Shown here: positions 3,943-60,247 of the stretch, in pieces
Numbering within the stretch: the stretch's first letter is position 1
Layout: the number at the start of each line of letters is the position of its first letter
Source: Sorghum bicolor
Lineage: Eukaryota; Streptophyta; Magnoliopsida; Poales; Poaceae
Assembly (NCBI RefSeq): GCF_000003195.3
Contig: NC_012874.2
Coordinates: 62,563,768-62,627,767 of the forward strand
Direction of reading: 5' to 3'
DNA length: 64,000 nucleotides
Notes under the pieces: generated by a model
Seen by the model: only the letters and a program-made list of their open reading frames with translations
Told to the model about the DNA's origin: nothing
Databases searched by the model: none
Program-made: the position numbers and the translations under genes

Positions 3943-4769
3943 ATGGAAATCGCGACGGGAGCCATAAGCACACTCCTGCCCAAGCTGGGCGACCTCCTCA
4001 AAGAGGAGTACAAGCTCCAGAAGAGCGTCAGGGGTGAGATCATGTTTCTCGAAGCCGAGCTAGAGGCCATGCAGACTGTTCTTCTTAAGATCTCGTCGGC
4101 GCCCATGGACGAGCAGCCTGACGCGCAAGTCAACCTTTGGGTGAGGGAGGTCCGGGAGCTTTCCTACGACCTCGAAGACAACATCGACAGATTCCTTGTG
4201 CGCATCGACCATGCGCCAGAGCAGCTCCATGGCCTCAGGGGCTTCATCGACAGAAGCCTTAAGCTTCTGACCAAGGTCAATCTCCGCCGACAGATCGGAA
4301 CCGATATCAGAGACATTAAAACGCGCATCAGGGAGGTGAGTGAGCGTCATGACAGATACAAGATTGATATCGTCACCGCAAAGGCTACTCGCCCAAGTGT
4401 TGACAGCCTTCGCCTATCAGCGCTGCACAAAAGGGCCTCAGAGCTCATTGGCACCGAAGAGAAGGTTATGGACGTAGTAAAAATGCTAAGGGAAGAAGAT
4501 GACCTCTCAAATCAGCAACTGAAAATAGTTTCCATTGTTGGTTTGGGTGGATTAGGCAAAACAACTCTTGCGAACGAGGTGTATAAGAAGCTGAAAGCTC
4601 AGTTCGAGTGTGAAGCATTTGTTTCTGTATCTCTTGACCCGAGAATGGATCAGGTTTTCAAGAGCATGCTCCGTCAACTTGATAAGGACAAGTACAACAA
4701 CATCAAGGGAGAAATGTGGGATGAAACTCAACTAATCAACGAGTTGAGATACCTCCTTAAAAATAAAAG
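3943..4769 (+). CDS. NLR exon 1: coiled coil and P-loop half of NB-ARC
   Basis: Start chosen at ATG 3,943 because the protein then begins [15 protein letters not shown], the usual start of grass Rx-type coiled coils; the upstream in-frame ATG adds an unrelated 62-residue leader. The exon ends AAAAG at 4,769 before GTATGA, leaving two bases that join exon 2 to give Arg276. Just inside the intron a stretch of about 20 bases (TACTACACCTTTAGCTTT) is repeated 31 bp apart. No stop or frameshift interrupts the exon. Confidence 0.9.
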
Positions 4770-7700
4770 GTATGATTGCTACTACACCTTTAGCTTTTTT
4801 TTTGAATGAGTACTACACCTTTAGCTTTGCTATTATTCTTTTATTGATTCCAGTTTGGTAGAAAGCCTACATGGTGTTTTTATTATCAGAAGAAAACATA
4901 TAGTCCTAATTAGTCTCCAAGTATAGCTAAGGCCCCAGTAACTCACTGGACAAACTTTTGGTTCAATCACTCTGGACTACATTATTTATACCTCTTAAGA
5001 AGTTTTTACCTTTTATTTTGGGTTTATCTAGATAAACTGTTGACAGATTTATCCAGTCAAAATCTGTCAGATTTGGGCCAATCAAGACATGACAGCTCAC
5101 CAAACAAAAACTGACAGACACTAAACAAAAAAAATCTGTCAAATCCAATATAACCAAAACAACAACCCATAACGGGTTTCCCAAACCCAAGATCCACTAA
5201 CAGAATTAAGCAACCAAAACAGTGTTGCTTCACGACTCTGAACTCATAATACTGTTGCTTTCTGTCAGAAAACACATGTTTTACCCACCCCACAAAACAT
5301 GACATAATTACAGATAAGTAGCTGACAAAATTCAGCATTACAGAACTCATATAGCTCATATAGCCCAAATCCAGCTAGCGACACCAGAGTTTACAACACG
5401 CAAATCAAACAAAGATCCAAAACCGGGTAATTTTCCTAAGGCCTTGAACCTGTAACATTTGCTGAGAATTAACAAACCAAGGCACGAGAATGATCACATA
5501 AAAACAACTGTACGACTTGTCATACGAAATGGACAGATCTACATGTGTATATGTGGGCAAGCCTTTGTCATACTGAGCATAATGGTTTCTTCCAAGTAGG
5601 AAGAACTACTACTAAACATATCGGTCCATACACACTTGAGAAACAACTACAGAACTACATGTGACAAGTTTAGAGGTGACTAAATAAAAGGGTTGCAGTC
5701 TGAAATTAAATGAGGGGAGTAAAGCTTGATCAAATAAAAATCTCTAGTAGCAAACAAGCTACTGAGAACTACTCTCTCCGTCTCTTTTTAATTGTCGTCG
5801 TTGATGTGCGTGCCAAAAGTTTGACTCGATTTATAAAAAATACGTGCAACATTTGTATCTCTAAATAATTTTGTTAAAAAACTAGATTCAAAGATCTTTC
5901 TAATGATACTAATTATGTATTATAAATATTAATATTTTTTAATATATAATTGTCGGCAGTTGTTTTTGGGAAGCGCAAGCGATAATTAAAAAGGGACGGA
6001 GGGAGTACAAATATAGCTCAAGCAACTAGTAGGATGGCAAAATATTAAACAAAGCCACTTAGTGTAGCATGAAAGATTGAAAGGGGCCACTAAACAAAAT
6101 GAGATATCAGCGCAAATCACTGTTATTGCTGCTCACCCAACAAACTGAAACCGACTTGATCAGTACATGACGTTGAACAAGCAGAATAGGAGCAGCAGAA
6201 ACACATCATGTGATTCTTGATATATACTCTAGAGAACACAAGGAAAAATTAAAACTTGAGTCCATTTCTATGGTACACTCTTTATTTAGTAGGAGGTAAT
6301 ATCTCAAATAAATCTAAGCCATAACATTTTTTAGATCTTTAATTAGTTAGTTGATTAATTAATCTAGAAATAGAAAGGAAAATATGTCAAATCCCCTCAC
6401 GGGGACAGAAAAGCAAGCGGGCCACCCTTCCTTTCCTATAGGCACGCATCCTCCCTTTCCTAATTTTTCATGTCGTTAAAATTTTAATTGTAAAAACCTT
6501 TTTAAATAGTTTAACTATTGTTTTTTTAAAACATATCATATGCAACCCTGCTTCGTGTGCAACCTATGCAACCACCAATTAAGGCCACAGGATCTAGATA
6601 ACGTCTGAGGTTTTGTTCACTTAAGGCCCTGTTTAGATTTGAAATTTTTTGACCAAAGTGCTAAAAATTTTTGTGGTCAGAATACGCGAAAAATTTTAGG
6701 TGTTTAGTTTGGCAAAAAAATTTCTAACACAATTTGGGTTGCATGCATTTGCAGTTGTCATTGGTGGGCTTCCATAGGAGTGCGTGCACAGTTGCAGCCT
6801 AAAATTTTTGCCCTAAAATTTTTTGGACCCGTTTAGTTCCCGGGCCCCAATTCTACAAATTTTTTTCTCTTTGAGCCAAAAAATTTCAAATCTAAACAGG
6901 CCCTAAACCCTCCTATTTGGATACACACGAGTTAGATTTAAACCCACAGGTGGAGGGGTTTAAGTGAAAAAAAACCTCAGATGTTGGATCTAGATCATGT
7001 GGCCTTAATTGGTGGTTGCATAAGTTGCACACGAAGCTGGGTTAGAGCATCTCTAACAACTTGGTATTTCAACATGCTATCCTACCAAATTTGCTAAAAG
7101 CATAAAAATCCTCCTCCAACAACTCCTTATCTCAACTTGCTAAATTTCCCAAGTTGCTATCCAGAGGTTTCTACTGCTGAGATTTGTCAAGTTGCTATCC
7201 CAAGTTGCTATCCCGAGCGCAACTTGTTGGAGACACATATTCTTTTACCAAGTGAGCGGGTCCCATCTGTCATCCTCTATTTTTACCAAGTGAGAATAGC
7301 AACTTATTGGAGACACATCCTTTTTTTCTTTTGCTAAACAAATTAGCAACTTGCTATAACTCAAGATTTGACAAATGAATTTTACCAAGTTGTTGGAGAT
7401 GCTGTTACATATGATACGTTGCCTTGTTTTTTTTGCTTGCATCTAAATTTTTTTTCCCAAGTTTGGTTCTTTGAACATTTTCGAGCAACCAATGATTGCT
7501 TGGATTATATGTTAAATCATATATCCGAATGCAAATTTGATGTATTCATTTCTAACTAACGTACAATAACATCAACATCTATATTTACATTCAAATTGAA
7601 ACTAAAATATGATATATCTACACGGGTTACTTATATAAAAGTAGTTTATACCAATTGGACACATTGGTAATTTATGTCAGATCTAAAGTTGCAAAGATTA

Positions 7701-16700: not shown

Positions 16701-19700
16701 CCTGTTGCAATGGCAAAGCCTTCACCATATCATTTGTAGCCTTTGCTACCTCCTGTTTGGAACCCAAGCCATCACCAGTGAATTCCCTGACATCTCTAGG
16801 CTTAGTGGGATACGAATAAAGCTTTCTTTCTAATCCCTGAGGTAGAGACAGATTTCACTATCTTCAGAGGCCTTGTGACCTCCTCATCTTAGCCATTATT
16901 CACTACCTTCTACCCCCATCTCATTCAACCTTCTACCAGCTATGACCATCACTACCTTTCCTCCTACCACTTCCCCAACTCCAAAGCTACTGCTACCCAT
17001 CCCACTCGATTTATTCCTCCATGGAAGTTGCTACCTCTACCCCATTTGTCAGACTCTAAACTCCTCCCCAAACTTATTCTTCTCTGGTATGTACCATAAA
17101 GCTTTTGATAGAGTTAAGCTAGCACATGTATCTTACTTTTCTGCATTTATACTTTCTGCAGTAGGGGTTCCTTGGCCTTCAAGTTGATCATGAGAAGCCT
17201 TGGCAACCAAGTAGCCTAGAGCATCTTGCTTTATGCAAGAATAAAATAAGTAGTTGGTACAGGCCCTGGTCTATATAAGCAGCAACCACCCTATTGTAAT
17301 GCTATGCTTTCCAACTTTTTGATTCAATCCAAGCGAACCATTGGTCAAGCTGACCTCTGGGATTTCTCTACCCTTTTTGCTTGTGATGTTTGGGCAACAA
17401 TTGGTATCTAGAGCCTAGGGTTAGAAAAGCCCCTACCTATCCACTGCGTTCTCCATGGCTTCCAACTGTACTGAGAGAGTGTGTCTGGCTGCCGCAACCA
17501 CTGAGAGCAAGAGCAACGGTTCACCGACAAGGTCGTCAATCTTGATAGCACTGAGGCTTGTCTCGCCTGTGCTGCTACAGCGGCAGCCGTGGCTCAGGCT
17601 ACGATGGCTATGGTCGCCGCTCTATGTGCGGAGCTAAAGAAGGAGGCAGGATTGGCTGGACATTCACTCAGCCTAAAACACCACCATCACATGTCGCCAT
17701 CCCTAGAGTGCTGTCATGAACGCCGCGGACACTCCCTGGTGGTGTAGGTCTACACGACAATAGCGACGCATGCCCATAGCTCACCCACTCCAACTACCAC
17801 GAGTGGAGCCTGCTGATGAAGGTCAAGCTCTAGCACAAGGACTCTAGGAGGTGGTCCGCTACGGTGACATGCAGTATGAGGATGATTGGTGTACCTTGAA
17901 GGCTCTCTGTGCTGCCATCCCACCAGAGTTGGGCACTACCATTGCCAACAAGGCGACCTCCAAGCTGACCTAAGAGGCGATCACGACCAGGCACGTCAGC
18001 GGTGAGCGCGTTCAGCGTGCCACCCTGCAGTAGTTCCGAGGTGAGTGGGAAGCTCTTGCCTTTCACCCAGGGGAGCATGTGGAGGACTTTGCGCTATGCC
18101 TCACCAACCTTTTGGAGCAGATGGCATGCAACGATGACATTGATCTCGATGAGGAGTGCACCATGGAGAAGTTCCTCTAGTGCATGCCAAAGAAGTATGA
18201 GCAGATGGTGCTCTCCATTGAGACTTAGTTCTATTTCAGGCAGCTCTCGATCGAGGACATCACTGGGCATCTCTTGGCGGTCCAGGATAGCGAGCACGCA
18301 TCAGAAGCAGAGTCGACTACTGGGAAGCTCCTCTACACCACCGAGCAATGGTGGGCCTTCAACAAGTAGAAGGAGGAGGAGGTGTCCAGGACGTCCAAGG
18401 AACAAGGTGATCAACGTCGATGTCCGCATGGCATCAATAAGAGCAAGGCCAAGGGCGACGATCATGGTTGTGTAGAAGATCATAGCGGTGGAGACAAGCC
18501 AAGGGCCACCGACGGCGATAGTTGGGCCAACTGCGATGACTACTGCCTCAATTGCAATCGCACTGGCCACTAGGCACATGATTGCCCCTATCCTCATCAT
18601 GACCGGGAGCATGGTGGCACTGCGCACGTGGCAGAAGTAGAGGAGGACCATGCCTTGTTCCTCGTGCATGGGTTCTTGGACCTAGATCTAGAGGAGAGCC
18701 GTGGCAAGGTTCAAGCTTCCTCCTTTCATGCCAAGAACACCGAGTTCAATGTTGAGGAGCCACAGGCGCATGCCTTCCTCGACACTAACTCTGACGGCTG
18801 AAACAAGCTCGATGGTTGGTACCTAGACAGTGGCACCACCCATCACATGACTAGACATCGAAAGCTCTTCACCGACCTAGACACGACGGCTAGAGGCATG
18901 GTGAAGTTCGGTGATGAGTCAAAGGTGGAGATCTCAGGCATTGGCTCCATCATCTTTGAGGCAAAGAACAGCGAGCACCAGGTACTCCATGGTGTGTACT
19001 ACAGCTTGGTGCTTCAAAACTTGATCATGAGTCTTGGACAACTCAACAAAGGAGGGTCTAAGGTGGAGATTGAAGATGATGTTCTTAGGATTTGGGACCA
19101 ATGCAAGCGGCTTCTCATCAAGGTTCGTCATGGTGCCAATCACCTCTACACGTCCTCCACATCAACATGGCCAAGCTGCTCTGCCTCGCCGCTCGCAAAG
19201 AAGATGAAGCCTGGAGGTGGCACGAGTGGTACGACCACCTCCACTTTGATGATCTTCACCAACTATCCAAGGGTGGCATGGCACGCGGGCTGCCAGTGAT
19301 CAACCATGTCAGCCAATTCTATGACACATGTGTCATCACCAAGCACCGCCGCACGCTGTTCCTGTCTGAGGCCAAGTATCATGCACAAGATCCACTGGAG
19401 CTCATCCATGGAGACCTATGTGGCCCCATCACATCAGCAACTCCCGGTGGCAGGTGCTACTTCCTACTGATGGTCGATGATGCCACATGGTACATGTGGG
19501 TGGTGTTGCTGACGACCAATGATGCCACTGCAGATGCCATCAAGCATCTCTAAGCTATGGTAGAGAAGAAGAGTGGGAAGAAGCTACAGACGTTGTGCAC
19601 AAACAATGGGCTTGAGTTCACTGTCGCCAAGTTCACATCGAACAGCGTCGAGGAGGGCATCCAACACCATTAGAGCACTCCCTACTCGCCGCAACAAAAT

Positions 19701-22700
19701 GGCATGTTGGAATGGAGAAACTAGATAGTCGTTGCCATGGAACAAGTGCTGCTGAAGCAAAGAAGACTCTTGGAACACTTCTGGGTGAAGGCTGTGGTGA
19801 CTGCCATTCATCTCTTAAATAGGGCATCGACCAAGGCACTGTAGGGCATAACGCCATATGAATCTTGGCATGGCAAGACGCCGGAGGTAGGGCTCTTACA
19901 CACATTCAGTTGTGTGGCCTTCACCAAGGATCTATCCTAGCTCAAGAAGCTCGACAACCATAGCTATCTCGATGTCTTCATCTGCTATGCTGACGATGCC
20001 AAGGCACACCGAGTCCTTGACCCGGTGACTCAGCGCATGTGCATTTTGTGTGATGTCATCTTTGAGGAGATCGTGGGTGGGATGGGGTCAAAGAAGGAGG
20101 GAGTTAATCTCTAGTGGATAAGGAGTTCATCGTCGAGCACTTCTAGGAAGATGGAGCAGAGGGGACATGCACTGCGATGTCCTCATCCTCTACGCCAAGC
20201 TCTCCTCCGACCATGCCACACTCGCTGACTCTAGCTCCAAGGGAGTAGCAGAGCACCAAGACAGAAGACAGTGTGGCTCTCGTGTCTCAGGTGACACCAA
20301 TCCCAAGCACCGATGAGTCCACACCAGCAACTTTATCCTCCTCACCATCAGTCGAACATGCCACACCACTGGAGGGATGAGGATTGGCTTGACATGTTCT
20401 ATGATGACGAGCCCCTCCACTACCGCATGGTGACGAGCATCATCGGTGACCAATCCCCTCTAGGCCTACCTCCACAACTCTACAACTAGCTCCACCTCAT
20501 GCACACAGGCGAGCCAACCAGCTATGTGGAAGCCAATGGTGATCCAGCATGGGAGGCGGCCATAGATCAGGAGCTCCAGGAGGTGGAGAAGAATAGGACC
20601 TAGGAGCTTGTGCACCTACCCACTAGACACTGACCAATCTCGTTCAAATGGGTGTTCAAGCTCAAGAAGGACGAGAAGGGGTGGTAGACAAGCACAAGAC
20701 AAGACTGGTGGCGAGAGGGTTCATCCAGCAAGAATGCATCAACTTCGAAGATGTCTTCGCACTAGTGGCAAGGATGGAATCCGTGCGTGTTCTCCTTGCA
20801 CTAGCGGCGCAAGAAGGCTGGAAGGTGCACCACATAGACGTGAAGTCTACCTTCCTTAGTAGTGACCTCAAGGAGGAGGTTTACGTGTGCTAGCCACCAG
20901 GCTTTGCCATCGCTAGAGAAGAAAGGAAGGTGTACTGTTTGCACAAGGCCCTCTATGGGCTGAGACAAGCACCACATGCCTGGAAAGAAAAGCTGGACAC
21001 CACGCTAAAGAAGATGGGCTTCTAGGAGGGTGTGCATGAGGCGGTGGTGTATCGACATGGCAATGGATGTTGTCTTGTTGCTCGGCGTCTACGTCGATGA
21101 CCTTATCATCACCAGTGCAAAGTGGAAGGAGGTGGAAAGCTTCAAGGCCACCATGAAGGATCAGTTCGAGATGAGAGACCTTGGCCTTCTCTCCTTCTAC
21201 CTTGGTGTCAAGGTGCATCAGGATGCCAAGGGCATCACCCTCCGGTAAGCTCACTATGCATAGCGCATCCTCAAGCTAGGGAAGATGGAGGACTGCAACC
21301 CAGTCGCCACACCCATTGAAGAGAAGCTGAAGCTCAGTCATGAGAGCATGGTAGAGGAGGTGGATCCTACACACTACTGGCAGCTCATTGGCAGCCTCTG
21401 GTACCTGGTGCACACTCGGCTGGACCTAGCATTCGTGGTCAGGTACTTGAGTTGATTTATGGAATGGCCCACTGAGGAGCATTAGCAAACCATCAAGCAC
21501 AAGCTTCGCTATGTGGCCAGGACCCTAAACTACGGGCTCCACTGCAAAAAGGCTCCCGACATTGCATGCTTCATCGGCTACTGTGACAGCGACCTCACTG
21601 ATGATGTCAACACAAGCAATAACATCGGTGGGAAAATGTTCTTCCTGCACAATTGCTTGGTTAGCTAGCAATCAATCAAGTAGAAGTGGTGGCCTTGTCA
21701 AGTTGTGAGGCAAAGTACATAGCCACCACAACTACTGCAGCCCAAGCTCTCTGGCTATCCAGGTTCCTCGAGGAGCTCCTAGGTAGGAAGGTGGAAGTGG
21801 TGGAACTAAGGGTGGATAACAAGTCTTCCCTCGCGCTGGCCAAGAACCCTGTCTTCCATGACAGAAGCAAGCACATCAGGACTAAGTTCCATTTCATTAG
21901 GGACTGTTTGGAAGAAGGGGGCATCTAGGCCAACTACATTCCCACCACAGATCATCTAGCCGACATCCTCACCAAGTCCCTAGGAAAGACCAAGTTCCAA
22001 GAGATGAGGGAGAGGATTGGCTTGAAGAAGGTCACCAAGTGCTAGGCTTAAGGGGGAGATTGATAGAGTTAAGCTAGCACATGTATCTTACTTTTATGCA
22101 TTTCTACTTTCTGCATTAGGGGTTCCTTGGCCCTCAAGTTGATTATGTCCTTGGCAACTAAGTAGCCTAGAGCATCGTGCTTTATGCAAGAATATGCTAA
22201 GTAGTTGGTAGAGGCCCTACTCTATATAAGCAGCAGCCACCCTATTGTAATGCTATGCTTTGCAACTTTTTGATTCAATCCAAGCAACGCATTGGTCAAG
22301 CTGACCTCTGGGATTTCTCTACCCTTTTTTCTTGTGATGTTTGGGCAATAGCTTTACTAAATAGTATTGCACCCTTCTCTAGGATCACTTCACACATGTA
22401 GTATGTGTGGCCTATGAGACCATAGGTATAGCAAAAATTTGGGAGGTGCTCATATTATAAAGGGCACCACATCATATTCTCCCACTACTCATCACCATGG
22501 TCGATTGTAACCCCCTCATCAATGGCTTACGAATATCCAACTTTCACCTTAATTCACATGTACTAACCAATGGCCATATCATCAACATCTGCGTCCACCT
22601 CTAATAAATCCCATGTCATCTCCCTAATCACCACAAGCTGCTTTATTCATCAGCACTAGAGGCATCCTAGTGATCATTACCCATATCATCAATAGTTTTG

Positions 22701-25700
22701 GCACCATCAAACTCCACCATTATCACCAAAGGTGAATGTGAATTGATTCTCCATGGTCTGTCAAGAGCCCTTCTCTTCCCTAGACCCTATAGAAAGGTGA
22801 ATGGGAATTGATTCTCTCCTAGATCTTTGTGCTCTACTCCCATAAGACACTAGATTTGCCAGAGCAAGAGTTCAAGAGCATGTGTCTAGACTATTTTTTT
22901 GCCAACACCTTCCCCACCACATATGGATCCCCCCATTTCCTAATCTCTTTTGCACTATTGATCGTAATACTCTTCTCCATCTCTAACTGGCTCATCTCCT
23001 ACAATAGACCAATCACATTGTCTCCTATTGGATTGATGGCGCCTAGAGATGCAGCCGCCTCATCCTAGAACCCTAGTTTTTGTGGCGATGGACTACTAGC
23101 AGGCTAGAAAATCTTGGCTAGGCTCTTGATGGAGAAAACAATGTGGACACAAATGTGGGATGGGAACGGGAATCGAGATCAGACTCCAACAAAAAATCTT
23201 ACTAGAAACAAGGTGGATGGAGAAAACCTAGTTCTCCCAAGAAACCCTTCTCAAGTCACGTTGTAGGCGCCAAGACTGCGTGGGTTTTGTAAGTTGTAAC
23301 AAGTCTTTTTCTGCCATGTTGCTTTTGGATCTGAGTGAGAGAAGAGAAAGAAGACACAATCGGTCTGGGCAAGAAGTGGAGTAAAGAAAGGTAGAGGGGC
23401 CCATGTGCAGCGGCGGATCCAAAGGGGGACTAATAAGTAATTTAGCAGCATGTTAATTTGTTCCAGTGGGACCATTATTGTTGAGTAGCAGGAACACGAC
23501 ACAAAAATGATCTTTCATAGTCTAAACTCATTAAAAGCATTCCATTCATCACATGTTAGGCACGGTAACACATTACATTTTGTGATGCTATTTTCTGTCA
23601 CTGGACTAGATATATATAGTGAATATTGACTATTGACCTAATACAATATGAATTAACAAAAATTATTTGTAGATATACATGCCTTATTTGATTCATCTTG
23701 AATAATGTTGTTGAAGAATAATCATATATAACTGGGCAGACTTTTTCTGTACTAAACTACTAATACATTGTTTTTTCTACGAAAGTACTGATACATTGTT
23801 GTCCCATGCTATTCTTGATAGGTACTTTATTGTTGTTGATGACATATGGAACAAATCTGTGTGGGCTAATATTTTGCGTGCTTTGAACAAATGTGGACGT
23901 GGGAGCAGAATAATCATAACCACTCGCATTCTTGATGTCGCCCAACAAGCAGACAGTGTTTATAAACTACAGGCTCTCTCAGCTGGTGACTCAAGAAAGT
24001 TATTCTTCCTCAGAATATTTGGTAATGAAAACAGATGTCTTCCAAAGGAATTGGATAAAGAATCTAAGAACATTTTAAGGAAATGTGGAGGTGTTCCTTT
24101 AGCTATAATCACGATCAGTAGTATGTTGGCCAGTAAGCAGGAAACAGAGAATACAAGTGAATATTGGGCCAAGGTGTGCGAATCTATGGGTTCTGGACTA
24201 GAAAATACAAGCTCAGATGTAATTGACATGAGAAGAATACTTTCGGTTAGTTATCATGACCTACCGCTACACCTTAGGACATGCTTGCTGTATCTAAGTT
24301 TGTATCCAGAGGATTATAAGATCATGACACATGATTTGGTATGGAAATGGATAGGTAAAGGTTTTGTTGTAATAAAACAAGGGATGAACATGTTTGAAGC
24401 AGGTGAGGATTATGTACATGAGTTAATTAACAGAAGTTTGATTCTGCCAACATTTGACAATAAAAGTAAGAAGGCAAGTAGTTTTCAAATACATGATATG
24501 GTACTTGATCTCATAACATTTTTGTCAAATGAGCAGCATTTCCTAACAAAATTAGGAGCTCAGGAGCCTGAGCATCTACCAAATAAGATCCGCCGACTAT
24601 CTCTCCACACCAGCAGCCAAGATGATGGCAAAAGGTTGCGAAATAAGAACTGTTCTCATGTTAGGTCACTTAGTGTGTTTCGTGGAGCTTTCAATATACT
24701 TCAAGAGATTTCAAGATTTCCAGTCTTGCGTGAGTTGGACTTAATTGAGGCACAAGTGAGTAATCATCACTTTAAGGATATTTGCAACCTATTTCACCTT
24801 AGGTATTTGAGGCTACCATGTGAAGGTATTAATGAGATCCCAAAAGAGATCGGGAATCTAAAGTTCTTGCAGGTGCTAGACATTCATAAGACTAATATAA
24901 TGGAGTTGCCGTCAACCTTTGCTCAGTTGCGGCAACTTGTCTACCTACGGTTTGGTGTGGTGATACCTGAAACAGATACGTTTGGATATATCAGTTTGAA
25001 GTCACCAATCATGCTGGATATACTGAGTGGACTGACTGAGTTGAGGCGTGTAAGTTTGGCTTTTACCCAGTGGGATGAAAGGTATGAGAAGCCCCTCCTT
25101 ACTTGGTTGTCCAACATGGTTTCTCTAAAGTACCTACATATTGATGGAACAGTCAGTAGTATTGACATAGGTTCCCGATATGACGAGCTATCACCACCAG
25201 GGCCTCAACAGCTTCAGACAATAGACATACCTTGTGCCATATGCTCCATTCCAAGATGGATGTCCTCACTTTGTTCCCTCTCCGTCATGCGTATCTCCCT
25301 GCTAACACAGAGATTGGAGGACCTTCAGATCCTTGGGAACATACCACGACTTTCTCATCTTTCGATAACAGTGAAGGAAACTACAGAAAGCAGACAAAAA
25401 GCGTTATTAGTCATCAGCAATGTTTATCCATTCTTGTGCCTAACCAAGTTTGAAATCTACAATAACTACATGGTTGTGATGTTTGCGGAAGGAGCCATGC
25501 AACAGCTTCAAACCCTCAAGTTTTCTGTGCGGGAATCAATGGATCAGTTTGGCAACTCCGGCTTTGGCCTAGAGAATCTCTCTTCACTTGAGAATGTCGT
25601 TGTAGACATGGTTTTGTCACGTGCAAAGCCTGAGGAGGTGGAGGCTGCAAAGGCTGCAATTCAGAATGCAGTCGACAGAAATCCGAACAAGCCCGAACTG

Positions 25701-28700
25701 AAGTTCGAAAAGGTACTGTACAAACTTGGTCTAAAAGCTGTTGCCCAAATATGTTAATTACTTTTATTGTTTAATATCTTCCTAACCTAATGCCTCTATA
25801 TAAATACTTCCTGTTCTTTATGTGGTTCTATCAGTTAATTGTCAATTATTCTATGTCCGTGTGTTTACCCCATTTCTAGTCATGATCCATTTCATCCAAC
25901 ATATTTACTTGGTTTCTGTGAGCTCGCGTTCCAGCCAACATTAGATGTTAAGTGTTTTAACTTTTGATGTTAATTTTACCAAAGTTGCTTTATACATTGC
26001 TTATTTAGATTCTCTCTTTTGATTTTATTAAGAATATGTAGTCTAGATCATATATAGCACTCTTAGTTGCTACAAAGGCATTAACATACATTCAGCTTGC
26101 ACTACAGCACCTAACGTGTCAAATTTCCCTATAACATGTGTAGTTGAAAGGATCTGCTCTAGGGGGTGAATACCCTATACAAATTTCTCCTATAAACTAC
26201 AACTCTTAGGTAAAGTGATTAGAATAAAAGAGACCCTGATAGCAACTAATTTGTCTAGCCTAATTCACCCCAATGCAAGTCTTACAAACAATTCTAGTAA
26301 CAAGGTCACACCCCTACTAGAGCAATCGAACAATCAAGAAGCTAGCAACTAAATAAGTTGAGCTTAGCAAGAAAAAACAACTAATCTAGCTACACTACTC
26401 AACTAGAGAGCTACCACTACAACTAGAGCTACACAAGCAACAACTATACTAGCTTAAGTACAAGAATTTAAGGCACAAGTGTAGATGAGCAAACCAATAG
26501 GACAAGTGAGAAAAAGATTTATCCCCGAGGTTGATTGCTTGCCAGTAACCTACATCCTCATTGAGGCGAGTCTCTTTATGATTTCTTCACGTGATAAGCA
26601 AACTACTCTAGCTTGACCCTGAATGTGGGTGCCGTAAAAAGCTAGTCAACCAACACTCCATCTAGCCTTGAACATTAATTCCACTAAAGTTGCCCTTTGC
26701 GATCTCCCAAGGAGTGGGCACAAAACTCCTCACAATCAACTCCACTCGAGCCCCCGCACAATCCTCACATAGTGCTCAATGTCACCTCGCTGCTCCAAGC
26801 TGTCTAGGTGCAGCAATCATCAAGAATGACAAGAAATATGTAGCTCCAATGATGAACTAGTGCTATTAGATGCAAACTCTCTAAGAAATGCACTATATCT
26901 CTCCCAATCTCACTCTAAATTAAACTCTATGCAAAGAAGTGAGAGGGAAATGTTCTTGAACTCCTCTAGGGTATATGTGTATTTGTAAGAATGTTGAAGA
27001 GATGCCCAAAGGATGAGTGCACCCCATTTACAGGCCTCCAAAGAAAACTAGCCATTGGGGAGCTGCTGGTGCATGTTTTCAAGGTCATCGGAAACTCCGG
27101 TGACCACCAGAAATGCCACCACCAGTGACTTTTTGTGAAGATTAACGGTCCTCATTTGGTACATTTTGTGAAGATTAACGGTCCTCATTTGGTGGAGTAA
27201 CTTGTAGAGATTTCTAGTGGCCTCCCTAAGGTAGGTTCCTCGACCCTTGGAATTTTCATCAGTCAATGTCATTTCTCTAGTGACTCTTCGGTAGTAAACA
27301 CCATACTATTCTTGTGAGGTAAAAACCTCTCAGTTTTGACACCCGAGAGCACAGAGGCATCATAGAAAATACCGATGACCCCCTCCCCCCCCCCACCCCC
27401 CACACGCCCACACGTTCACCAACACCACTGGCGAAAATGCTCATATGTTTAAAACTCCCACACATAGGTCCTCAACCGCCTTTTATCTGGCACTGGCGTC
27501 AGCCTAGGTGGTGCAAATCCAAAGGAAGCCAACCAACAAACAATTTGTAACACTCAAGAAGAAAACCAGATAAACAACATTCTGGAGTATTGTGAGACTA
27601 CACTCTAACAAGAATACATCAACAAAGAATACGGGAGCAACAAACTTCATCTAAGTTGAACAATTAAGTCTCCTACGATGACATAAGCAAGGCATCTTCA
27701 AACAAACCTTAGATGGTTATTACAACATACAAAATGACTCTACAACCAACTTGGATTACAACCATAAAAAGTTTATACCAAGATGAAAGTGTAAGAGAGG
27801 TGCTACGTGTATGCACGCCCATTCCATATGTGGAGCTAGGCCATATAAGCAGATTTTGGATGTGTGGTTTTACACAGTTAGCATTTGGCACCTTTTCTCT
27901 GGTGCTTCCCTAACAGAGGAACCAGATATTTCCCATGGGTGTAGAAAACATGCACCAATTCCTTCTCTAAAATGCTTTTCAAATAAACTAAATCTAAAAA
28001 TGTGTTCTAACTTGAACATAACACCTTACAGAGTTAGGTTTTTAAAAATATTTTGAAAAGCATTTTCACTTGCTTCCTCACATTACTAGGTCCAATGCAT
28101 ATGCAAAGTTAGTTTAAACCTAATGGGACTATAGATAACCGTAGTCGCTTTAGAATTTCGCTCTTAATAGTATGGCTATCTATCATAAATCTAACCATGC
28201 GCTATTACATGCATCTTGGTCAGCGAAATAAAACCCTAAGCATATACCTTTATCTTCAGGCTTGATTTCATTTGCTCTTCTGTGTCGCTTCTCTTCATGT
28301 GTGAGCACTTGGTTTATGTATAGCGTATGCCTTTATGTGGTGAAACTCCATTTGTCATCAGGACCTGTTTCGTGTCTAATGAGTGATAATGATGTTGTGT
28401 CCACTGATTGCCTTGTTTATCTGTTTCTACAATATTCTCAGCGGGTTATAATGAGGATCAAGAGTGAACAAAAGACTAAAGCCTTTGGGGCCGTCGCGGG
28501 TATTTGTGGTAAGAAACACATCCTTTTTACGCGCGTTGCATTACAAAAATTTGCTAGTTTATTGCTTTTTTTTTACCCAATTTTGCCCTTCCATCCCTGT
28601 CTATGGCAAATATATACGCCAAAGAAAATTGAGATGTTATGTGTGCCACATTGATATATCCAGGTATTGATTCAATAAGCTTTGAGAGTCACCTGGGGAT

Positions 28701-28980
28701 GCTCACGGTCGCCGGCATGGTGGAACCCACCACCATAATTAAGAAGCTGAAAAAATCTTCCATACAGGCGCAACCATGGGAAGTAAGGGCAGCGGCACCG
28801 ATGGTCTCCATGGTTCATAGTAGTGTGGAGGAGGCGGCGGCGCCTAGCCAAAATAGCGCCTGGGGTCGAATCTGTTGCCTGCCTGCAGCTGCGTGTGCAA
28901 GATTTTCATCCAAACATGACCTGACTAATACGTCCAGGATAACAGAGACAGTGACAACCTCAGAGCCAGCGTCACAGTAA
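3943..28980 (+). CDS. NLR immune receptor, CC-NB-ARC-LRR with C-terminal HMA domain (RGA5-like layout)
   Basis: Proposed join: 3943-4769, 23822-25712, 28442-28508, 28664-28980; 3,102 nt, 1,033 residues. All three introns are GT-AG and all phases fit (2, 0, 1). Rx-type coiled coil at residues 1-130 with EDNID at 78-82 (family form EDVID); P-loop GLGGLGKTT at 200-208; kinase-2 FIVVDDIW at 278-285; RNBS-B around 303-311; GLPL-type GGVPLAI near 365; RNBS-D near 430; IHD instead of MHD at 499-501; LRRs about 540-890; HMA fold about 907-960; polar tail to 1,033. NLRs of this class sense pathogen effectors in the cytosol, and C-terminal HMA domains in the RGA5 group bind effectors directly (family knowledge). 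If the phase-0 donor at 25,713 is not used, translation stops at 25,757, giving 920 residues without HMA. The NLR itself is certain; joining the HMA exons is inference from splice phase and family architecture. Confidence 0.7.
5772..6005. mobile_element. Stowaway-type MITE
   Basis: A 234-bp element with terminal inverted repeats CTCTCTCCGTCTCTTTTTAA and its complement ending GGGACGGAGGGAG, flanked by the dinucleotide TA at 5,770-5,771 and 6,006-6,007. Ends and TA duplication are the Stowaway (Tc1/mariner) signature. No coding capacity. Confidence 0.9.
6625..6903. mobile_element. Tourist-like MITE
   Basis: A 279-bp element with ends GGCCCTGTTTAGATTTG and the near-complement CAAATCTAAACAGGCCC; TAA occurs on both sides (6,622-6,624 and 6,904-6,906), as expected for PIF/Harbinger-type insertion. 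The interior is AT-rich and non-coding. Confidence 0.85.
7045..7404. mobile_element. MITE with GAGCATCTC termini
   Basis: Inverted termini GAGCATCTCTAACAACTTGG and CCAAGTTGTTGGAGATGCTG flanked by TTA on each side (7,042-7,044; 7,405-7,407). Related ends (GAGCAWCTCCAACAG) recur at 29,847-30,202, about 31,048-31,809 and 54,443-54,990, so this is one dispersed family. Short direct repeats of CAAGTTGCTATCC fill its interior. Confidence 0.75.
8560..9285. repeat. Low-complexity tract with CA and GA microsatellites
   Basis: A CAGCAR-rich stretch (8,560-8,760) is followed by A/C-rich DNA with a CA run at 9,017-9,047, shorter CA runs to 9,090, another at about 9,247-9,260 and a GA run at 9,262-9,280. 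Open frames on both strands here are by-products of the composition; none has a domain. Confidence 0.85.
9541..10066 (-). pseudogene. Phosphoglycerate kinase (PGK) gene fragment
   Basis: Three blocks in order on the minus strand match plant PGK: about 10,066-9,975 ([12 protein letters not shown]), about 9,880-9,684 ([15 protein letters not shown], then [19 protein letters not shown] and AGFLVQK), and 9,616-9,541 ([15 protein letters not shown], then GSGDSVA). The second block ends at a proper donor (AAG/GTAATT) and the third begins after a proper acceptor (TTCAG/GCG), so an intron survives, but the roughly 150-200 residues that normally separate these blocks are missing. An extra T after VADL shifts the frame. 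It is a dead fragment inside the NLR intron, in antisense to it. Either a transposon carried it in or it is a degraded local copy; no carrier ends were found. Confidence 0.8.
10661..14161. mobile_element. Solo LTR of a large LTR retrotransposon
   Basis: Starts TATAATACCC (degraded TGTAATACCC) and ends AGAGTGTTACA, the inverted TG...CA ends of many grass gypsy LTRs, and is flanked by the 5-bp direct repeat ATCAG at 10,656-10,660 and 14,162-14,166. It is 3,501 bp, or about 2.96 kb without the nested hAT element. No internal domain, primer-binding site or second LTR is present, so it is the product of LTR-LTR recombination. Open frames near 12,460-13,320 are chance frames in GC-rich LTR sequence. 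Confidence 0.8.
13562..14091. mobile_element. Non-autonomous hAT element nested in the solo LTR
   Basis: A 530-bp element with ends CAATGTTTTAAATAGCG and the complement CGCTATTTAAAACATTG, flanked by the 8-bp duplication ATGAGCAC (13,554-13,561 and 14,092-14,099), which is diagnostic for hAT. The subterminal regions are full of the palindromic motif GCGCTATAGCG in both orientations, probably transposase-binding repeats. No coding sequence. Confidence 0.92.
14167..15132. other. Intron DNA with a GC-rich block, no recognised gene
   Basis: A GC-rich segment (about 14,280-14,770) interrupts AT-rich DNA. Its minus strand is open for 168 codons but the product (repeated Trp, Gly, Pro, Arg) matches no family I know and splice logic is absent. 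It could be a captured gene fragment like the PGK piece; this is unproven. Confidence 0.3.
15133..15369. mobile_element. Tourist-like MITE (mPing-type ends), first of an abutting pair
   Basis: Begins GGCCAGTTTCATGACA and ends TGAAACTCCCACTGAGATTAGTC, with TAA on each side (15,130-15,132; 15,370-15,372). The ends, rich in GAGTTTCAT, are those of the mPing-like group and resemble the element at 31,997-32,182. Confidence 0.7.
15373..15581. mobile_element. Tourist-like MITE, second of an abutting pair
   Basis: Ends GGCTTCCTTTTAG and the imperfect complement ACCAAAGGTGCCC; flanked by TAA at 15,370-15,372 and 15,582-15,584. It shares the left TAA with the preceding MITE, so one of the two inserted exactly at the other's edge. 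Confidence 0.6.
15600..17100 (-). pseudogene. LINE ORF2 relic, endonuclease part (3' portion of a split LINE)
   Basis: On the minus strand this reads as the endonuclease of a plant L1-type LINE: a [15 protein letters not shown] segment near 16,300, then [16 protein letters not shown] and [11 protein letters not shown] at 16,259-16,080, followed by the charged linker that normally precedes reverse transcriptase. Frames are broken by stops and shifts. The reverse transcriptase and 3' tail that should follow at lower coordinates are missing and the sequence stops beside two MITEs, unusual because LINEs normally lose their 5' ends. Copia inserted at its right edge; the 5' half continues at 22,356. 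Confidence 0.7.
17106..17399 (+). repeat. Copia 5' LTR
   Basis: 294 bp, TGATAGAGTTAAGC to GGGCAACA. A TATA box lies in CTATATAAGCAG near 17,271, which would drive the element's transcript. It has four bases (GAGA region near 17,190) that the 3' LTR lacks. Confidence 0.95.
17402..17415 (+). other. Primer-binding site
   Basis: TGGTATCTAGAGCC follows the 5' LTR by two bases. It matches the complement of the 3' end of initiator tRNA-Met (TGGTATCAGAGC) except for one inserted T. The same variant occurs in the small LTR element at 59.7 kb. Confidence 0.8.
17455..22044 (+). pseudogene. Copia gag-pol, multiply interrupted
   Basis: Recognisable pieces in order: zinc knuckle CLNCNRTGH followed by a stop (near 18,545); protease [12 protein letters not shown] (18,820-18,855); pre-integrase HEWYDHLHF (near 19,220); integrase HGDLCGPI and [11 protein letters not shown] (19,410-19,500); reverse transcriptase [37 protein letters not shown] and the active-site YVDDLI (20,700-21,110); RNase [23 protein letters not shown] and [11 protein letters not shown] (21,690-21,990). 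Most interruptions are TAG codons where the family has Gln or Trp, plus a few frameshifts. Not able to encode a working polyprotein. Confidence 0.92.
22050..22059 (+). other. Polypurine tract
   Basis: AAGGGGGAGA directly before the 3' LTR; the expected start site for plus-strand DNA synthesis of the copia element. Confidence 0.85.
22061..22350 (+). repeat. Copia 3' LTR
   Basis: 290 bp, starting TGATAGAGTTAAGC and ending GGGCAATA, so its terminal CA has mutated to TA. It carries the same TATA motif as the 5' LTR near 22,222 and could in principle start transcripts inside the NLR intron in the sense direction. Confidence 0.93.
22356..23420 (-). pseudogene. LINE ORF1 relic (5' portion of the split LINE)
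   Basis: Minus-strand continuation of the LINE interrupted by copia. A start-like [14 protein letters not shown] lies at about 23,375-23,334, as in plant LINE ORF1 proteins, followed by degraded ORF1 sequence with many stops to the copia junction at 22,356. The upstream boundary near 23,420 is a guess from loss of LINE-like sequence; no target duplication was identified. Confidence 0.5.
23421..23821 (+). other. End of NLR intron 1, no separate feature
   Basis: AT-rich intron DNA leading to the acceptor. TACTAATACATTG at 23,758-23,770 is a plausible branch-point region, and a similar ACTGATACATTG follows about 30 bp later. Confidence 0.5.
23822..25757 (+). CDS. NLR exon 2: kinase-2 to end of LRR (with the readthrough stop)
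   Basis: Opens with the base that completes Arg276 and then YFIVVDDIW. It carries the rest of NB-ARC, the winged helix (IHD variant of MHD) and the LRR, without a stop. In the HMA model the coding part ends at 25,712 (..PELKFEK) at AAAAG/GTACTG, exactly between codons. If unspliced, 14 more residues ([14 protein letters not shown]) lead to TAA at 25,755-25,757. Both ends are plausible, so transcripts are needed to say which dominates. Confidence 0.9.
25713..28441 (+). other. Proposed NLR intron 2, with dispersed repeat DNA
   Basis: Donor GTACTG; acceptor TTTCTACAATATTCTCAG with a good pyrimidine stretch; phase 0, 2,729 bp. From about 26,140 to 28,260 it is filled by a degraded repeat whose parts recur at about 32,660-33,540 (for example ACTACTCAACTAGAG and TATGGNTATCTATC). 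A C-rich run sits at 27,380-27,410. No gene was recognised. Confidence 0.55.
28442..28980 (+). CDS. HMA-domain exons (28442-28508 and 28664-28980)
   Basis: The first exon gives [20 protein letters not shown] and ends ICG; after a 155-bp GT-AG intron (phase 1) the second gives [19 protein letters not shown] and TTIIKKLKK, then an alanine/serine-rich tail. The order beta-alpha-beta-beta-alpha-beta and the GIDSI and TVAG..EP motifs are those of HMA domains. The metal-binding MxCxxC is absent (MRIKSEQ in its place), as in HMA domains integrated into grass NLRs. No good independent start codon with an N-terminal HMA strand is seen upstream, which favours the reading as the last exons of the NLR. 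The alternative is a separate truncated HMA gene. Confidence 0.7.
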
Positions 28981-42646: not shown

Positions 42647-45224
42647 ATGGCTGGACTCTCAAACATCTCCTTCGACCCCGGGCTCAAGTTTGGCAACCAG
42701 ATCTTTCAGCGCTTTGGCTGCTCGGTGAGTCCAACCCCCTCCCAGTTGTCGTCTTCATTCAAGCTGGTTGCAAGTTTCGGCCGTTCTGCCATTCGCCTCA
42801 ATGAAGATTTAGTTGGTCTCTTACTGCAATCCTGCCTAGGTGGACACAGTAATGATTTTCATGTCAAACATTTATCGGGTTGGATGTTTAGCTTTCAAGT
42901 TTCCTACAAAATTTGGTTTCTTGATCAAAAGCCTAGGTTCTTTTTCTTGCCAATTGTTTGCTATCCTCTTCTTCCTCTAGGGGAACGGTGGTCCAAATTG
43001 GCTTAGAGAATTTCACCTTTGGATTGATGAACAAAATGCCGAATGGACCACCGTCTCCCGCAAATCGAGCAATTCTCATATTGCTCCCAAAGGCCGGAAA
43101 AGCTATGCTGACAATGTCAAATCAACCCCGCCATCTAGAAGATCAGTATTCAAACGTCTTCAATACCCGGACAATTACGCTGACGCGTTCTTGGATAAGA
43201 ATCATAGCAATCCTTTCTCTAATTCTAAAACGGTTCATTTTCGCCAGAGTTCAAATTCAAATCCAATCTCATCGGCTCAACCCCGCCATTCTCGCCCCCC
43301 TTCAGTTTGGAGGCCCAAATCTCACGCTGATTCTAAGGCGCCTCAAGCGCCTCTAGAAAAACAGACCCCGGCTCTTTCGGATCCCAACAAAATAGTCTAT
43401 GGATCGCTGAACCGCTGCCCACGCTGCCTGGGCCTAGGCCATGACCGGTTTTTGTGCAAAGGAGATCTCCGTTGCGAGGTTTGCTTCGAGTATGGACACT
43501 CGCGTATATCTTGTTTCTCCAAATCCAAATCCCAAAAGTTTCGGCCTGTTACTGTTAAGGAAGTTGAAGGGGCGCGAGTAAAGGCTATATATATGCCCTC
43601 CTCGAGTCTCACGGGTGCCTCTACCCAGATCTTCGCCTCAACACCCCCCCTAACAACACAAGCTACTGTTCCCGAACTCACCTCGAGCTCTCCGATGGCG
43701 AACTTTGCCGCAGATCCCAGGCCCTTCATCCCTAAGGGCTTTGTGCTGGATGAGGTCCAGGCGTCCCCGCTCCTGCGCCATGAAGTCTACATCACTGGGT
43801 GCTACAACAAGTCTAACGAGGACCTGGCGATCGCGAAGCTCACCCCCCCCCCCCCCCGCCCCCCGTGCACAAGGCTGATTTTCGTCTGCTTGCCAGAGAG
43901 CTGAAGACCTTCTTCCACGACGTCCATCAGGTCTTCGGTACAAATATCTCTCCCTGCCCTATCGGTGACGCTTTTATCAAGTTCAGCAATCCTTTTGAGC
44001 GTGATAGGTTTCTGGGTCCAAACTTTGTGTTTGGTAACTACATTCTGCACTTCATCCGGCATGACGAGGCAGAGAACGCCAGGGCCTTTGCCATTGATCG
44101 TGAAGCCATGATCCTATTCCTGGCCTACCCAGAGGACCTGAGGCACACTCAGCATGTTGCAAAAGCAGTTTCGCAGTTTGACATCCTGATTGGTTGGGAC
44201 GACACCCAGCCAGGATGTGTCACAGCCAAAGTCTATCTCAACGATGACGCCAAGATCCCTTCTTCCATCAAGTTGATCACTGGCCTCCACCCCAATGGGA
44301 AATCTTGGACTTCACCTTGCTATATCTTAAAGAGAAGCAATGTCACCCTACTGCCAGATGAGGAAGGTTTTGTGATGATTGGTCCTCTTCACCCCTTCCC
44401 TACCCCGGCTCCTCGCTAGGAAGGACCGGTCCCGCCTGCCTACCCAAGCGCCAGTCCTGTTCAGTCTGCGGCTGGCGGCTCAAACTCGCCCAATAACAAA
44501 GAAGCTACTAGACCGGGAATGATGCAGGGTCTTGAAGCCAAGGATGGAGATGCTAAAAACACTTCAAGTGCTTTTGTTTTTTAGGACAGGTACCAACCAA
44601 TCCCTCCAGGGTTCACCAGAGACAGCCCTAAGGTTAAATCCATTGTGGTGGCAGCAAACAGAGATAACTCCCCTCGTGGTCCTACGGTAAAGCTGAATAT
44701 GAATTTTGACATCAATAAGGTACTTGGCTTCATCTCCAAATCCCCTGCTCCTAGTGCTTTTATCTTCCTGAATCATTTGGATATTAACCCTGATCTTCCC
44801 ATCCCGCCTTATTTTTGCGACTTCCTAACTCTGGCCTGGTTGGCCTTCCTCATCCCTGATCAGGACATGGACAAGGCCCCCTCTAGAGCTGAGCTAAAGG
44901 AGATCACTGAGGAGGAGGTGATGGAAATCTTTGGAAATCAGTTCGTCTAGAAAAAGAGAAAGCTCTCCAAGACCAAGCAGCAAGTACATGATCGCCACCT
45001 CAGCCGCAGCAGGCGGAGCGCCATCAAGCAAGACGGATTCAAGAAAGACGTGCTCCACCCACTGCCCCTGGCTATGATCCCGGCTTCGCCGAAAGCGCCA
45101 ACTCCCGAACCTGCACCCTACCTGCCAATGGAAGTAGCACATGGGATTGCCACTGGCTTCCTTCAGATCCATCCTAGCGATGCGTCTGCGGCCATCCTTA
45201 AGAAGGACGTCGATGGAATTTGAA
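42647..45224 (+). pseudogene. LINE ORF1 (Gag-like RNA-binding protein), frameshifted
   Basis: Starts MAGLSNISFDPGLKFG; an early part contains LNEDLVGLLLQSCLGG and LSGWMFSF, then the frame shifts near 42,990. Next come a CCHC-type pair (CPRCLGLGHDRFLC and CEVCFEYGHSRISC, 43,420-43,520) and a proline-rich stretch. A run of 15 C at 43,843-43,857 breaks the frame again; the DUF4283-like part FRLLARELKTFFHDVHQVFG continues in another frame to a TAG at 44,417. Further segments run on to about 45,224 between stops at 44,582 and 44,948. Confidence 0.85.
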
Positions 45225-45611
45225 GACCCTGGTCCATGGTTGTTGCACTCTAGGCAAAGAGTGCTTATTTTGCTTAAGTTTAGTAGCTTGCTCTCTAGCA
45301 TCAAACTCTTGTGTTTCTCCCAGCTTGCACGCTGGCTATCTCTAGTCGTTCACTTTGTTACTTGTTTGTCTCTGGGACACAGACTCTTTGTGTTGGTTGT
45401 CAACGTTTATGAGAAGTTTGGTTTGTGGTACCCCGTCAGAATTCTTAATCACTTCAAGCTATTTGAAAGGTTTTCAGAGACCATTACCCCCAATCCTTTT
45501 ACTGTCTACATAATGGCTCTGTACGAGAATCTCTTTGGCTGCAAGCCCTCAGAGGTTTCCCTGACTCCCTTGGGGGGTCAGGCTGCTTCTTTATTTTTTC
45601 CACGGTCATCG

Positions 45612-48600: not shown

Positions 48601-49208
48601 TAGATGTACTCCTAACATCGAGTTTGGAGAGCCAGGAAACTCCTGATTCCTGGGAATACACTTGGGGAAACATTTTCCTTCCAAAAAAGGCCTATAACCA
48701 CCTCCAAGGACAGGTCAATGCCCCACCGATCTTCAAATGGATTTGGAAAGGAGGAAAGCTTGGAAAACACAAATTCTTTACTTGGTTGCTGGTTAGAGAC
48801 CGCCTGTGCACCAGAAACCTCCTTAAAAGGAAAAGGATGCACCTGGACAGCTATGCTTGTGCTCTCTGCACTCACTCCCCAGAAGAGACATGCTTACATC
48901 TGTTCTTTACTTGTACCTTTAGCCAAACCTGCTGGAACCTCTTGCAAATAGACTGGGACCTTGATCTCCCTCCTCAAGAAATGCTGATAAAAGCCAGAGT
49001 GAATTTTGGAAGCCACATCTTTAGAGAAATTTTCATCACAACATCCTGGACGATTTGGAAAGTCAGAAATGGTGTCATTTTTGACAATAAAGCAGCCTCC
49101 CTTACTGAATGGAAAATCTTATTGAAGGAAGAACTAGGTTTGGTTTGTTTAAAAGCCAAACGGAGGACTGCTGACCCCCTAAAACTTTGGTGCGAGAATA
49201 GGCTTTAA
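45612..49208 (+). pseudogene. LINE ORF2 (endonuclease and reverse transcriptase), frameshifted
   Basis: Begins MNNSRQFNVLVWNIRGLN. Endonuclease marks: LQETKRE, GGIITIWNG, LAGDFNLYRS and PISDHIPF (to about 46,310). After breaks at about 46,392, 46,685 and 47,045 the reverse transcriptase has [55 protein letters not shown] and the catalytic YADDTLLI (near 47,680). A TAG at 48,156-48,158 replaces Trp, then the zf-RVT domain follows, with IFKWIWKGG and the C..C..H..C pattern CALCTHSPEETCLHLFFTC (48,730-48,920). Stop TAA at 49,206-49,208. Confidence 0.92.
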
Positions 49209-59727: not shown

Positions 59728-60050
59728 TGTCATGGGCATAAAGAGGGGCGCCGTAGGGCGCAAGTGTCCTAGTTGGGCCTTAAGCCCATTAGTGTTAATT
59801 AGTGTCTCTCTTAGTTATTTGTCTATAGGAATAGTACCATATTGTCTAGGCACAAGAGGTGTTAGTCCTATGTACCTTTTATATTCAGCCCATGGGGCAC
59901 AATGGAAAGCAAGCAATGAATTATGAAGAAACAATTCTAGTCTCCCTCAATCTCTCAAGCTCTTGGCAAAGCATAAGGCCTAGTTATCCTAAAGCTCTTG
60001 GCAAAGCATAAGGCCTAGTTATCTATCCTAAAATACCCTCGTTCATAACA
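59728..60050 (+). repeat. 5' LTR of the small retrotransposon
   Basis: TGTCATGGGC to GTTCATAACA. Each LTR contains its own 35-bp tandem duplication (units starting AGCTCTTGGCAAAGC at 59,958 and 59,993). Confidence 0.95.
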
Positions 60051-60247
60051 TCTGGTATCTAGAGTCCAGCGATCCTCTTCATCCAAAAAAAAAACATCGA
60101 TTCAGATCCCGATCCCCACCACCATCCGCCGCCGCCGCCGCCGCCACAACTCCAACACCGGCAGCCGCCACCACAACCACCAGGCCGCCGTCCGCCTCCC
60201 CCTGCACCAACGACCTCGAAGCTTCCCTGGCGATCATCACAGCCGCC

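What the first reader, a model, noticed from the sequence alone, without database searches (positions are those of the whole stretch)
25700..28980. NLR with a probable C-terminal integrated HMA domain
Seen: after the LRR of an intact NLR a GT donor lies exactly between codons at 25,713, and 2.7 kb downstream a good acceptor at 28,441 opens, also at phase 0, onto an HMA domain made of two exons. The joined frame is open to a stop at 28,978-28,980. Known: in the grass RGA5 group of sensor NLRs an HMA domain after the LRR acts as effector-binding bait. Inference: this is an NLR-HMA fusion with a degenerate metal site (no MxCxxC).
Basis: partly seen in the sequence, partly recalled or inferred. 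Interest (0 to 1): 0.87.

Follow-up and report, generated by a model that had tools for sequence, protein, structure and literature searches.

The report
Plant immune receptor with HMA bait

Summary
Exons 3943-4769, 23822-25712, 28442-28508 and 28664-28980 join into an open frame of 1033 aa: CC, NB-ARC, LRR, then an HMA domain. Two database relatives, P0002 and P0004, read the same NLR-HMA joint as continuous protein, so they are probably transcripts of such fusions. An HMA profile without sequences of the window's own lineage has one strong match in the window, at the predicted place; an AlphaFold model of P0002 gives the HMA fold. MxCxxC is absent, as stated. The RGA5 assignment fails: NB-ARC is 61% identical to Yr10, 46-48% to MLA13/Sr35, 35% to rice RGA5, and grouping RGA5 with it is rejected (AU p=1.5e-5). 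Relatives in Aristida, Urochloa, Lolium and Avena carry C-terminal HMAs in the same splice slot; Pfam reports the HMA in one of these ten proteins. P0002 and P0004 are 97-98% identical in CC and NB-ARC but 39% in the HMA. Unlike RGA5, the receptor has an MLA/Sr35-like first helix and canonical nucleotide-site motifs, so it may sense and execute alone. That step, and effector binding, are inferred.

The parts
3943..4769 (+). coding exon 1: CC (Rx_N) and first part of NB-ARC, MLA/Sr35-like first helix MEIATGAISTLLPKLGDLL
   Evidence: P0002 residues 1-273 align at 3943-4773 with 79% identity
4770..23821 (+). intron 1, 19 kb, inside NB-ARC (..KNKR|YFIVVDDIW..), with a copia-like element
17105..22348 (+). 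degenerate Ty1/copia-like LTR element inside intron 1; LTRs 17105-17397 and 22060-22348, 93-94% identical in the two matched blocks
   Evidence: copia-like frames with stops read by eye, no family search run on them
23822..25712 (+). coding exon 2: rest of NB-ARC, winged helix, LRR and LRR cap ending NPNKPELKFEK
   Evidence: P0002 aligns at 87% from 23820 to 25712
25713..28441 (+). intron 2 (phase 0) between LRR cap and HMA; if retained, 14 residues (VLYKLGLKAVAQIC) and a stop at 25755-25757
   Evidence: relative P0003 reads through the same donor
28442..28508 (+). coding exon 3: HMA beta-1 and alpha-1
28509..28663 (+). intron 3 (phase 1) inside the HMA; donor reads G|GTAAGAAA
   Evidence: protein models P0077, P0107 and RGA5 P0137 run on as GKK/GKS at the same place (by eye)
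28664..28980 (+). coding exon 4: rest of HMA, then a C-terminal tail whose last part is in another frame than in P0002; stop 28978-28980

Best explanation
This is one four-exon grass CNL gene whose product carries a C-terminal, metal-site-less HMA domain. Shown: the open gene model, the HMA identity, the same joint as continuous protein in relatives, and the Yr10-type placement outside the RGA5 lineage. Inferred: the HMA is added through a fixed splice slot after the LRR cap, works as an effector-binding bait, and its engagement lets an intact MLA/Sr35-like chassis assemble into a resistosome; retention of intron 2 would give an HMA-less form, as in RGA5-B.
For: Open 1033-aa model; Rx_N, NB-ARC, WH_DRP, LRR_14; HMA tail matches the Rmo2 HMA at E 2.5e-5, and a profile of ten tails matches 28 PDB chains at E<=0.1, by their names HMA, HMA-bearing or metal-chaperone proteins; six-frame control; P0002 and P0004 read the joint as continuous protein; AlphaFold model of P0002, β-α-β-β-α-β at 897-964, block pLDDT 75-89 apart from the last block at 65; NB-ARC identities and trees; HMA 39% identical between P0002 and P0004 while CC and NB-ARC are 97-98%; P-loop, Walker B, RNBS-B and IHD motifs and an MLA/Sr35-like first helix, against GPAGIGKT and no match to my Walker B or RNBS-B patterns in RGA5.
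Against: No transcript of this locus was seen. Pfam has no HMA hit in the tail at E<=10. The C-terminal tail is in a different frame from P0002. The 19-kb, TE-bearing intron 1 could reduce expression. The frame of exon 3 is open for 71 codons upstream, with Met codons, so a separate start is not excluded by sequence. No effector, partner or phenotype is known. P0002 and P0004 come from an unnamed source, and that they are transcripts is inferred.
Confidence: 0.83

Rival explanations
1. RGA5-clade (MIC1) sensor NLR that works only with a head-to-head helper.
For: Same order CC-NB-LRR-HMA, C-terminal HMA with an intron at the same HMA position as in RGA5; NCBI calls several relatives 'RGA5-like'.
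Against: NB-ARC 35% to RGA5; AU test p=1.45e-5 and 0.0012; canonical nucleotide-site motifs and MLA/Sr35-like first helix, unlike RGA5; no second NLR found in the window by tblastn, though only 3.9 kb upstream of the ATG is in view.
Confidence: 0.06
2. The HMA exons belong to a separate neighbouring gene or a remnant, and the NLR ends at 25757 by reading into intron 2.
For: P0003 reads through the donor; 2.7 kb separate the exons; the exon 3 frame is open upstream to 28229 with Met codons, and exon 3 itself has an ATG at 28451; no transcript of this locus.
Against: P0002 and P0004 are continuous through this joint; splice sites and phases fit exactly; a start at 28451 would cut beta-1.
Confidence: 0.08
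3. A decaying gene: the fusion is real by descent, but this copy is a pseudogene. (This overlaps with the best explanation, which does not claim that the copy works.)
For: Tail out of frame relative to P0002; copia-like insertion in intron 1; GKGF where P0002 has GEGF in the WHD.
Against: 1033 codons without a stop at about 17% amino-acid divergence from P0002 (836 of 1004 aligned residues identical); the NB-ARC motifs looked for are present; the frame change lies beyond the HMA.
Confidence: 0.15

Closest known systems
Rice RGA5 (NLR-HMA, MIC1 clade; partner RGA4)
   Same: HMA after the LRR, intron inside the HMA at the same place, no MxCxxC, an HMA-less isoform possible here and reported there
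   Different: NB-ARC only 35% identical and outside the clade; 6-residue linker instead of 72; canonical nucleotide-site motifs and MLA/Sr35-like N-terminus; HMA nearer to Rmo2 and Os03g0111400 than to RGA5 by single-sequence search
Yr10-type CNLs, and more distantly Sr35 and MLA
   Same: NB-ARC and CC family, first helix, overall fold (Foldseek best hits Sr35 and MLA13 for P0002)
   Different: The Yr10, Sr35 and MLA13 sequences met here end without an HMA (Yr10: profile, no hit; Sr35, MLA13: from knowledge); the window gene carries one
Rice Pik-1 (HMA between CC and NB-ARC)
   Same: integrated HMA used as effector bait (literature)
   Different: HMA position differs; no protein of the 137 examined gave an HMA hit between CC and NB-ARC; Pik-1 NB-ARC itself was not available for the tree
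Integrated HMA of barley Rmo2 and Rpg1-type kinases
   Same: closest solved HMA (9tfo, E 2.5e-5; profile 9.3e-12)
   Different: carried by kinase proteins according to PDB molecule names and a review's RPG1 entry, not by an NLR; that Rmo2 is such a kinase is my inference

Membership tests
NLR with integrated HMA | CC, NB-ARC and LRR in one reading frame with the extra domain | tested here: met
   continuous in P0002/P0004; transcript of this locus not seen
NLR with integrated HMA | extra domain is an HMA by sequence | tested here: met
   Pfam PF00403 itself not matched
NLR with integrated HMA | β-α-β-β-α-β fold | tested here: met
   model of relative P0002, not of the window protein
NLR with integrated HMA | effector binding by the HMA | not testable with these tools
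   needs protein work
RGA5 / MIC1 clade | NB-ARC groups with RGA5 | tested here: not met
   one RGA5 allele as sole MIC1 member
RGA5 / MIC1 clade | CID motif before the integrated domain (PMC5819176) | tested here: inconclusive
   a cap ending NPNKP lies there, but the published CID model was not available
RGA5 / MIC1 clade | head-to-head helper NLR within 15 kb | tested here: inconclusive
   none found in the window, but only 3.9 kb upstream is in view; own-genome search unanswered
Yr10-type CNL | NB-ARC groups with Yr10 | tested here: met
   window nested in the clade that holds Yr10 in both trees, but that clade's own support is low (0.473 in FastTree; 33 in IQ-TREE); identity 61%
MLA/Sr35 clade | NB-ARC groups with MLA and Sr35 | tested here: inconclusive
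   FastTree joins MLA/Sr35 to the Yr10-type NLRs before the jacalin NLRs (1.0); IQ-TREE joins the jacalin NLRs first (100) and MLA/Sr35 later (57)
MLA/Sr35 clade | MLA-like first helix and canonical NB-ARC motifs | tested here: met
HMA metal chaperone | MxCxxC metal motif | tested here: not met
   RVIMRIKSEQKTKA has no Cys in the loop and is shorter there than RGA5 in the alignment

The most novel reading that the evidence does not exclude
A lineage of Yr10-type CNLs, present in BOP and PACMAD grasses, carries poorly detectable HMA baits in an exchangeable splice slot and works as singletons: the same molecule senses through the HMA and forms the resistosome, without an RGA4-like helper, and paralogues renew specificity by replacing or rapidly diverging only the HMA exons.
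Probability: 0.35. Interest if true: 0.78.

Novelty: new variant of a known kind. Interest (0 to 1): 0.6.

Why it matters
The HMA-bearing NLRs with known effectors in the review table I saw, RGA5 and Pik-1, work with a helper NLR. An HMA on an apparently complete MLA/Sr35-like chassis would test whether an integrated bait can act in a single, self-sufficient receptor, which matters for receptor engineering. Pfam misses the domain in nine of the ten proteins compared here, so surveys that rely on Pfam would undercount such baits.

Tried and rejected
RGA5 membership was tested and rejected. Pfam: no HMA match in the window tail or in P0002, P0065, P0073, P0099, P0109; precomputed Pfam lists lack it for P0004, P0006 and P0010 and give PF00403 for P0057. 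Against 'undetected': UniRef already names P0010 and P0057 'HMA domain-containing protein'. A single old HMA integration shared by all these NLRs was considered and left open: the 6-residue linker is constant, but Aux/IAA and Nudix relatives use the same slot, HMA-bearing members do not form one clade, and the Lolium HMA is nearer to RGA5 than to Rmo2. Gene models that stop early may hide further HMAs, so absence in relatives is not shown.

HMA by a small profile (RGA5, Rmo2, Os03g0111400; C-terminal pieces of 137 proteins): 10 of 137 above the inclusion line (window, P0057, P0073, P0109, P0002, P0099, P0065, P0004, RGA5 P0137, P0006); P0010 fell just below it (9.0 bits), with P0078, P0100 and P0077. 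Rmo2 and Os03g0111400 were chosen because they matched the window, and RGA5 is itself a seed. The larger profile had nine of its ten full-length hits among its own seeds, so it is not independent; best shuffled score there 7.6 bits, P0077 8.8. P0107 was judged by eye only. Trees: 115 of 137 proteins had a long enough NB-ARC (22 dropped, P0003 and P0065 among them), plus 4 PDB chains; 26 taxa chosen by me went into the AU test. Paper searches gave no report of this lineage in their listings; listings show at most 20 papers each and the library lacks most subscription journals.

Full report
THE GENE. The window is grass DNA: where the listed relatives are named, they are grasses; the species is unknown. 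A script joined exons 3943-4769 (827 nt), 23822-25712 (1891 nt), 28442-28508 (67 nt) and 28664-28980 into 1033 codons with no internal stop. Pfam finds Rx_N 7-92, NB-ARC 174-421, WH_DRP 436-507 and LRR_14 555-902. Intron 1 is 19 kb and holds a degenerate copia-like element with LTRs at 17105-17397 and 22060-22348. tblastn of twelve relatives finds no other NLR in the window.

THE FUSION IS REAL BY DESCENT. P0002 (1018 aa) and P0004 (981 aa), from contigs of at most 3498 and 3684 bases in a source marked lgn, are reading frames without a break where the window has its three introns. I take them for transcripts, because genomic copies would carry introns; the source gives no label. P0002 matches the window at 3943-4773, 23820-25712, 28427-28534 and 28654-28881; the pieces end at, or within 26 bases of, the predicted splice sites. 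Identity over the aligned protein is 836 of 1004. P0003 (707 aa, 93% identical in the searched part) begins in sequence like the end of intron 1 and reads through the donor, so it looks genomic or unspliced.

THE TAIL IS AN HMA. phmmer against PDB gives five hits at E<=10: the Rmo2 HMA (2.5e-5), rice Os03g0111400 (0.0025), an engineered Rmo2 HMA and two chains named as kinase proteins. A profile of ten tails from this family gives 28 chains at E<=0.1, by name HMA, HMA-bearing or metal-chaperone proteins, RGA5 and Pik-1 among them. A profile without window, P0002 or P0004 finds one strong place among 2030 ORFs of the window; two of its nine seeds came. AlphaFold on P0002 with 30 sequences (pTM 0.64, mean pLDDT 70) puts E897-908, H913-921, E926-932, E937-942, H948-957 and E962-964, the HMA order. 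[quoted passage not shown]

NOT RGA5. A database search with the RGA5 HMA found one protein, P0137 from rice, with the RGA5 HMA start and read-through at the HMA intron. Window NB-ARC identities: P0002 86%, Yr10 61%, Sr35 48%, MLA13 46%, two jacalin NLRs 47-48%, ZAR1-like 36%, RGA5 35%, NRC3 31%. FastTree on 119 NB-ARCs and IQ-TREE on 26 both nest the window with P0002, P0004, a Paspalum and an Aristida protein in the clade that holds Yr10, with RGA5 outside. Forcing RGA5 beside the window lineage costs 61.6 log units (AU p=1.45e-5), forcing it into the wider clade 25.9 (p=0.0012). Deep nodes are unsettled: FastTree joins MLA/Sr35 to the Yr10-type NLRs first (1.0), IQ-TREE joins the jacalin NLRs first (100), and the Yr10-type clade itself has low support (0.473 and 33).

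A SLOT WITH CHANGING CONTENT. After the cap ending NPNKP (or NPSRP, NPKRP), six residues lead into beta-1 in the window, P0002, P0004, Aristida P0006 and P0065, Urochloa P0010 and P0057, Lolium P0073, P0099 and Avena P0109 (beta-1 start set by eye). In RGA5 P0137 the stretch is 72 residues. The same slot leads into an Aux/IAA-type domain in barley P0088 and a Nudix domain in Triticum urartu P0037. P0002 and P0004 are 98% identical in the CC, 97% in NB-ARC and winged helix, 87% in the LRR, 89% in the cap and 39% (25 of 64) in the HMA. Exchange or fast divergence of the HMA alone both fit; I cannot separate them without DNA. Bailey et al. (PMC5819176, passages) described a common breakpoint after the LRR in MIC1; this looks like the same habit in another clade.

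HOW IT PROBABLY WORKS. The N-terminus MEIATGAISTLLPKLGDLLKEE resembles Sr35 (MEIAMGAIGSLLPKLGELL) and MLA13, and my patterns for P-loop, Walker B, RNBS-B, GLPL, RNBS-D and MHD-like motifs match the window, whereas RGA5 P0137 lacks matches to the Walker B and RNBS-B patterns. Foldseek's best matches of the P0002 model are Sr35 and MLA13. I therefore infer a receptor that could execute by itself, with the HMA as sensor. RGA5 makes an HMA-less isoform, RGA5-B (PMC9528084, passages); retention of intron 2 here would add 14 residues and stop. Effector, helper and expression are unknown.

NOVELTY. HMA integration in grass NLRs is known for RGA5 and Pik-1, and in the table row that I saw of a Pfam survey the one grass with an HMA-NLR is T. 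urartu (PMC4759884, passages). UniRef already labels the two Urochloa proteins as HMA-containing. I found no report of this Yr10-type lineage in the listings of the searches named in Tried and rejected. I file it as a new variant of a known kind.

Noticed in passing
window 60032-61261: One open frame joins a retrotransposon gag domain (PF03732, residues 145-228) with an IQ calmodulin-binding match (PF00612, best stretch 255-271).
   Followed up: partly
window 42981-49208: Non-LTR (LINE-like) retrotransposon pieces: endonuclease (PF03372), reverse transcriptase (PF00078) and zf-RVT (PF13966) in successive frames; the first frame, 42981-43901, has no Pfam match.
   Followed up: partly
window 52138-53202: Harbinger-like (name recalled) transposase ORF of 355 aa with DDE_Tnp_4 (PF13359).
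   Followed up: partly
window 17105-22348: Copia-like element in intron 1; 'AGCTTT' stands near both outer ends of the LTR pair, a possible target-site duplication.
   Followed up: partly
window 28868-28980: The C-terminal tail continues in a different frame from P0002, whose ending DRICSLQLRVQDCFHPSM is matched in the neighbouring frame at 28868-28918.
   Followed up: partly
P0010 and P0057 C-termini: The Urochloa NLR-HMAs end in CSIM and CSVM, like RGA5's CSTM, a possible CaaX-type tail (motif meaning recalled); the window protein ends otherwise.
   Followed up: no
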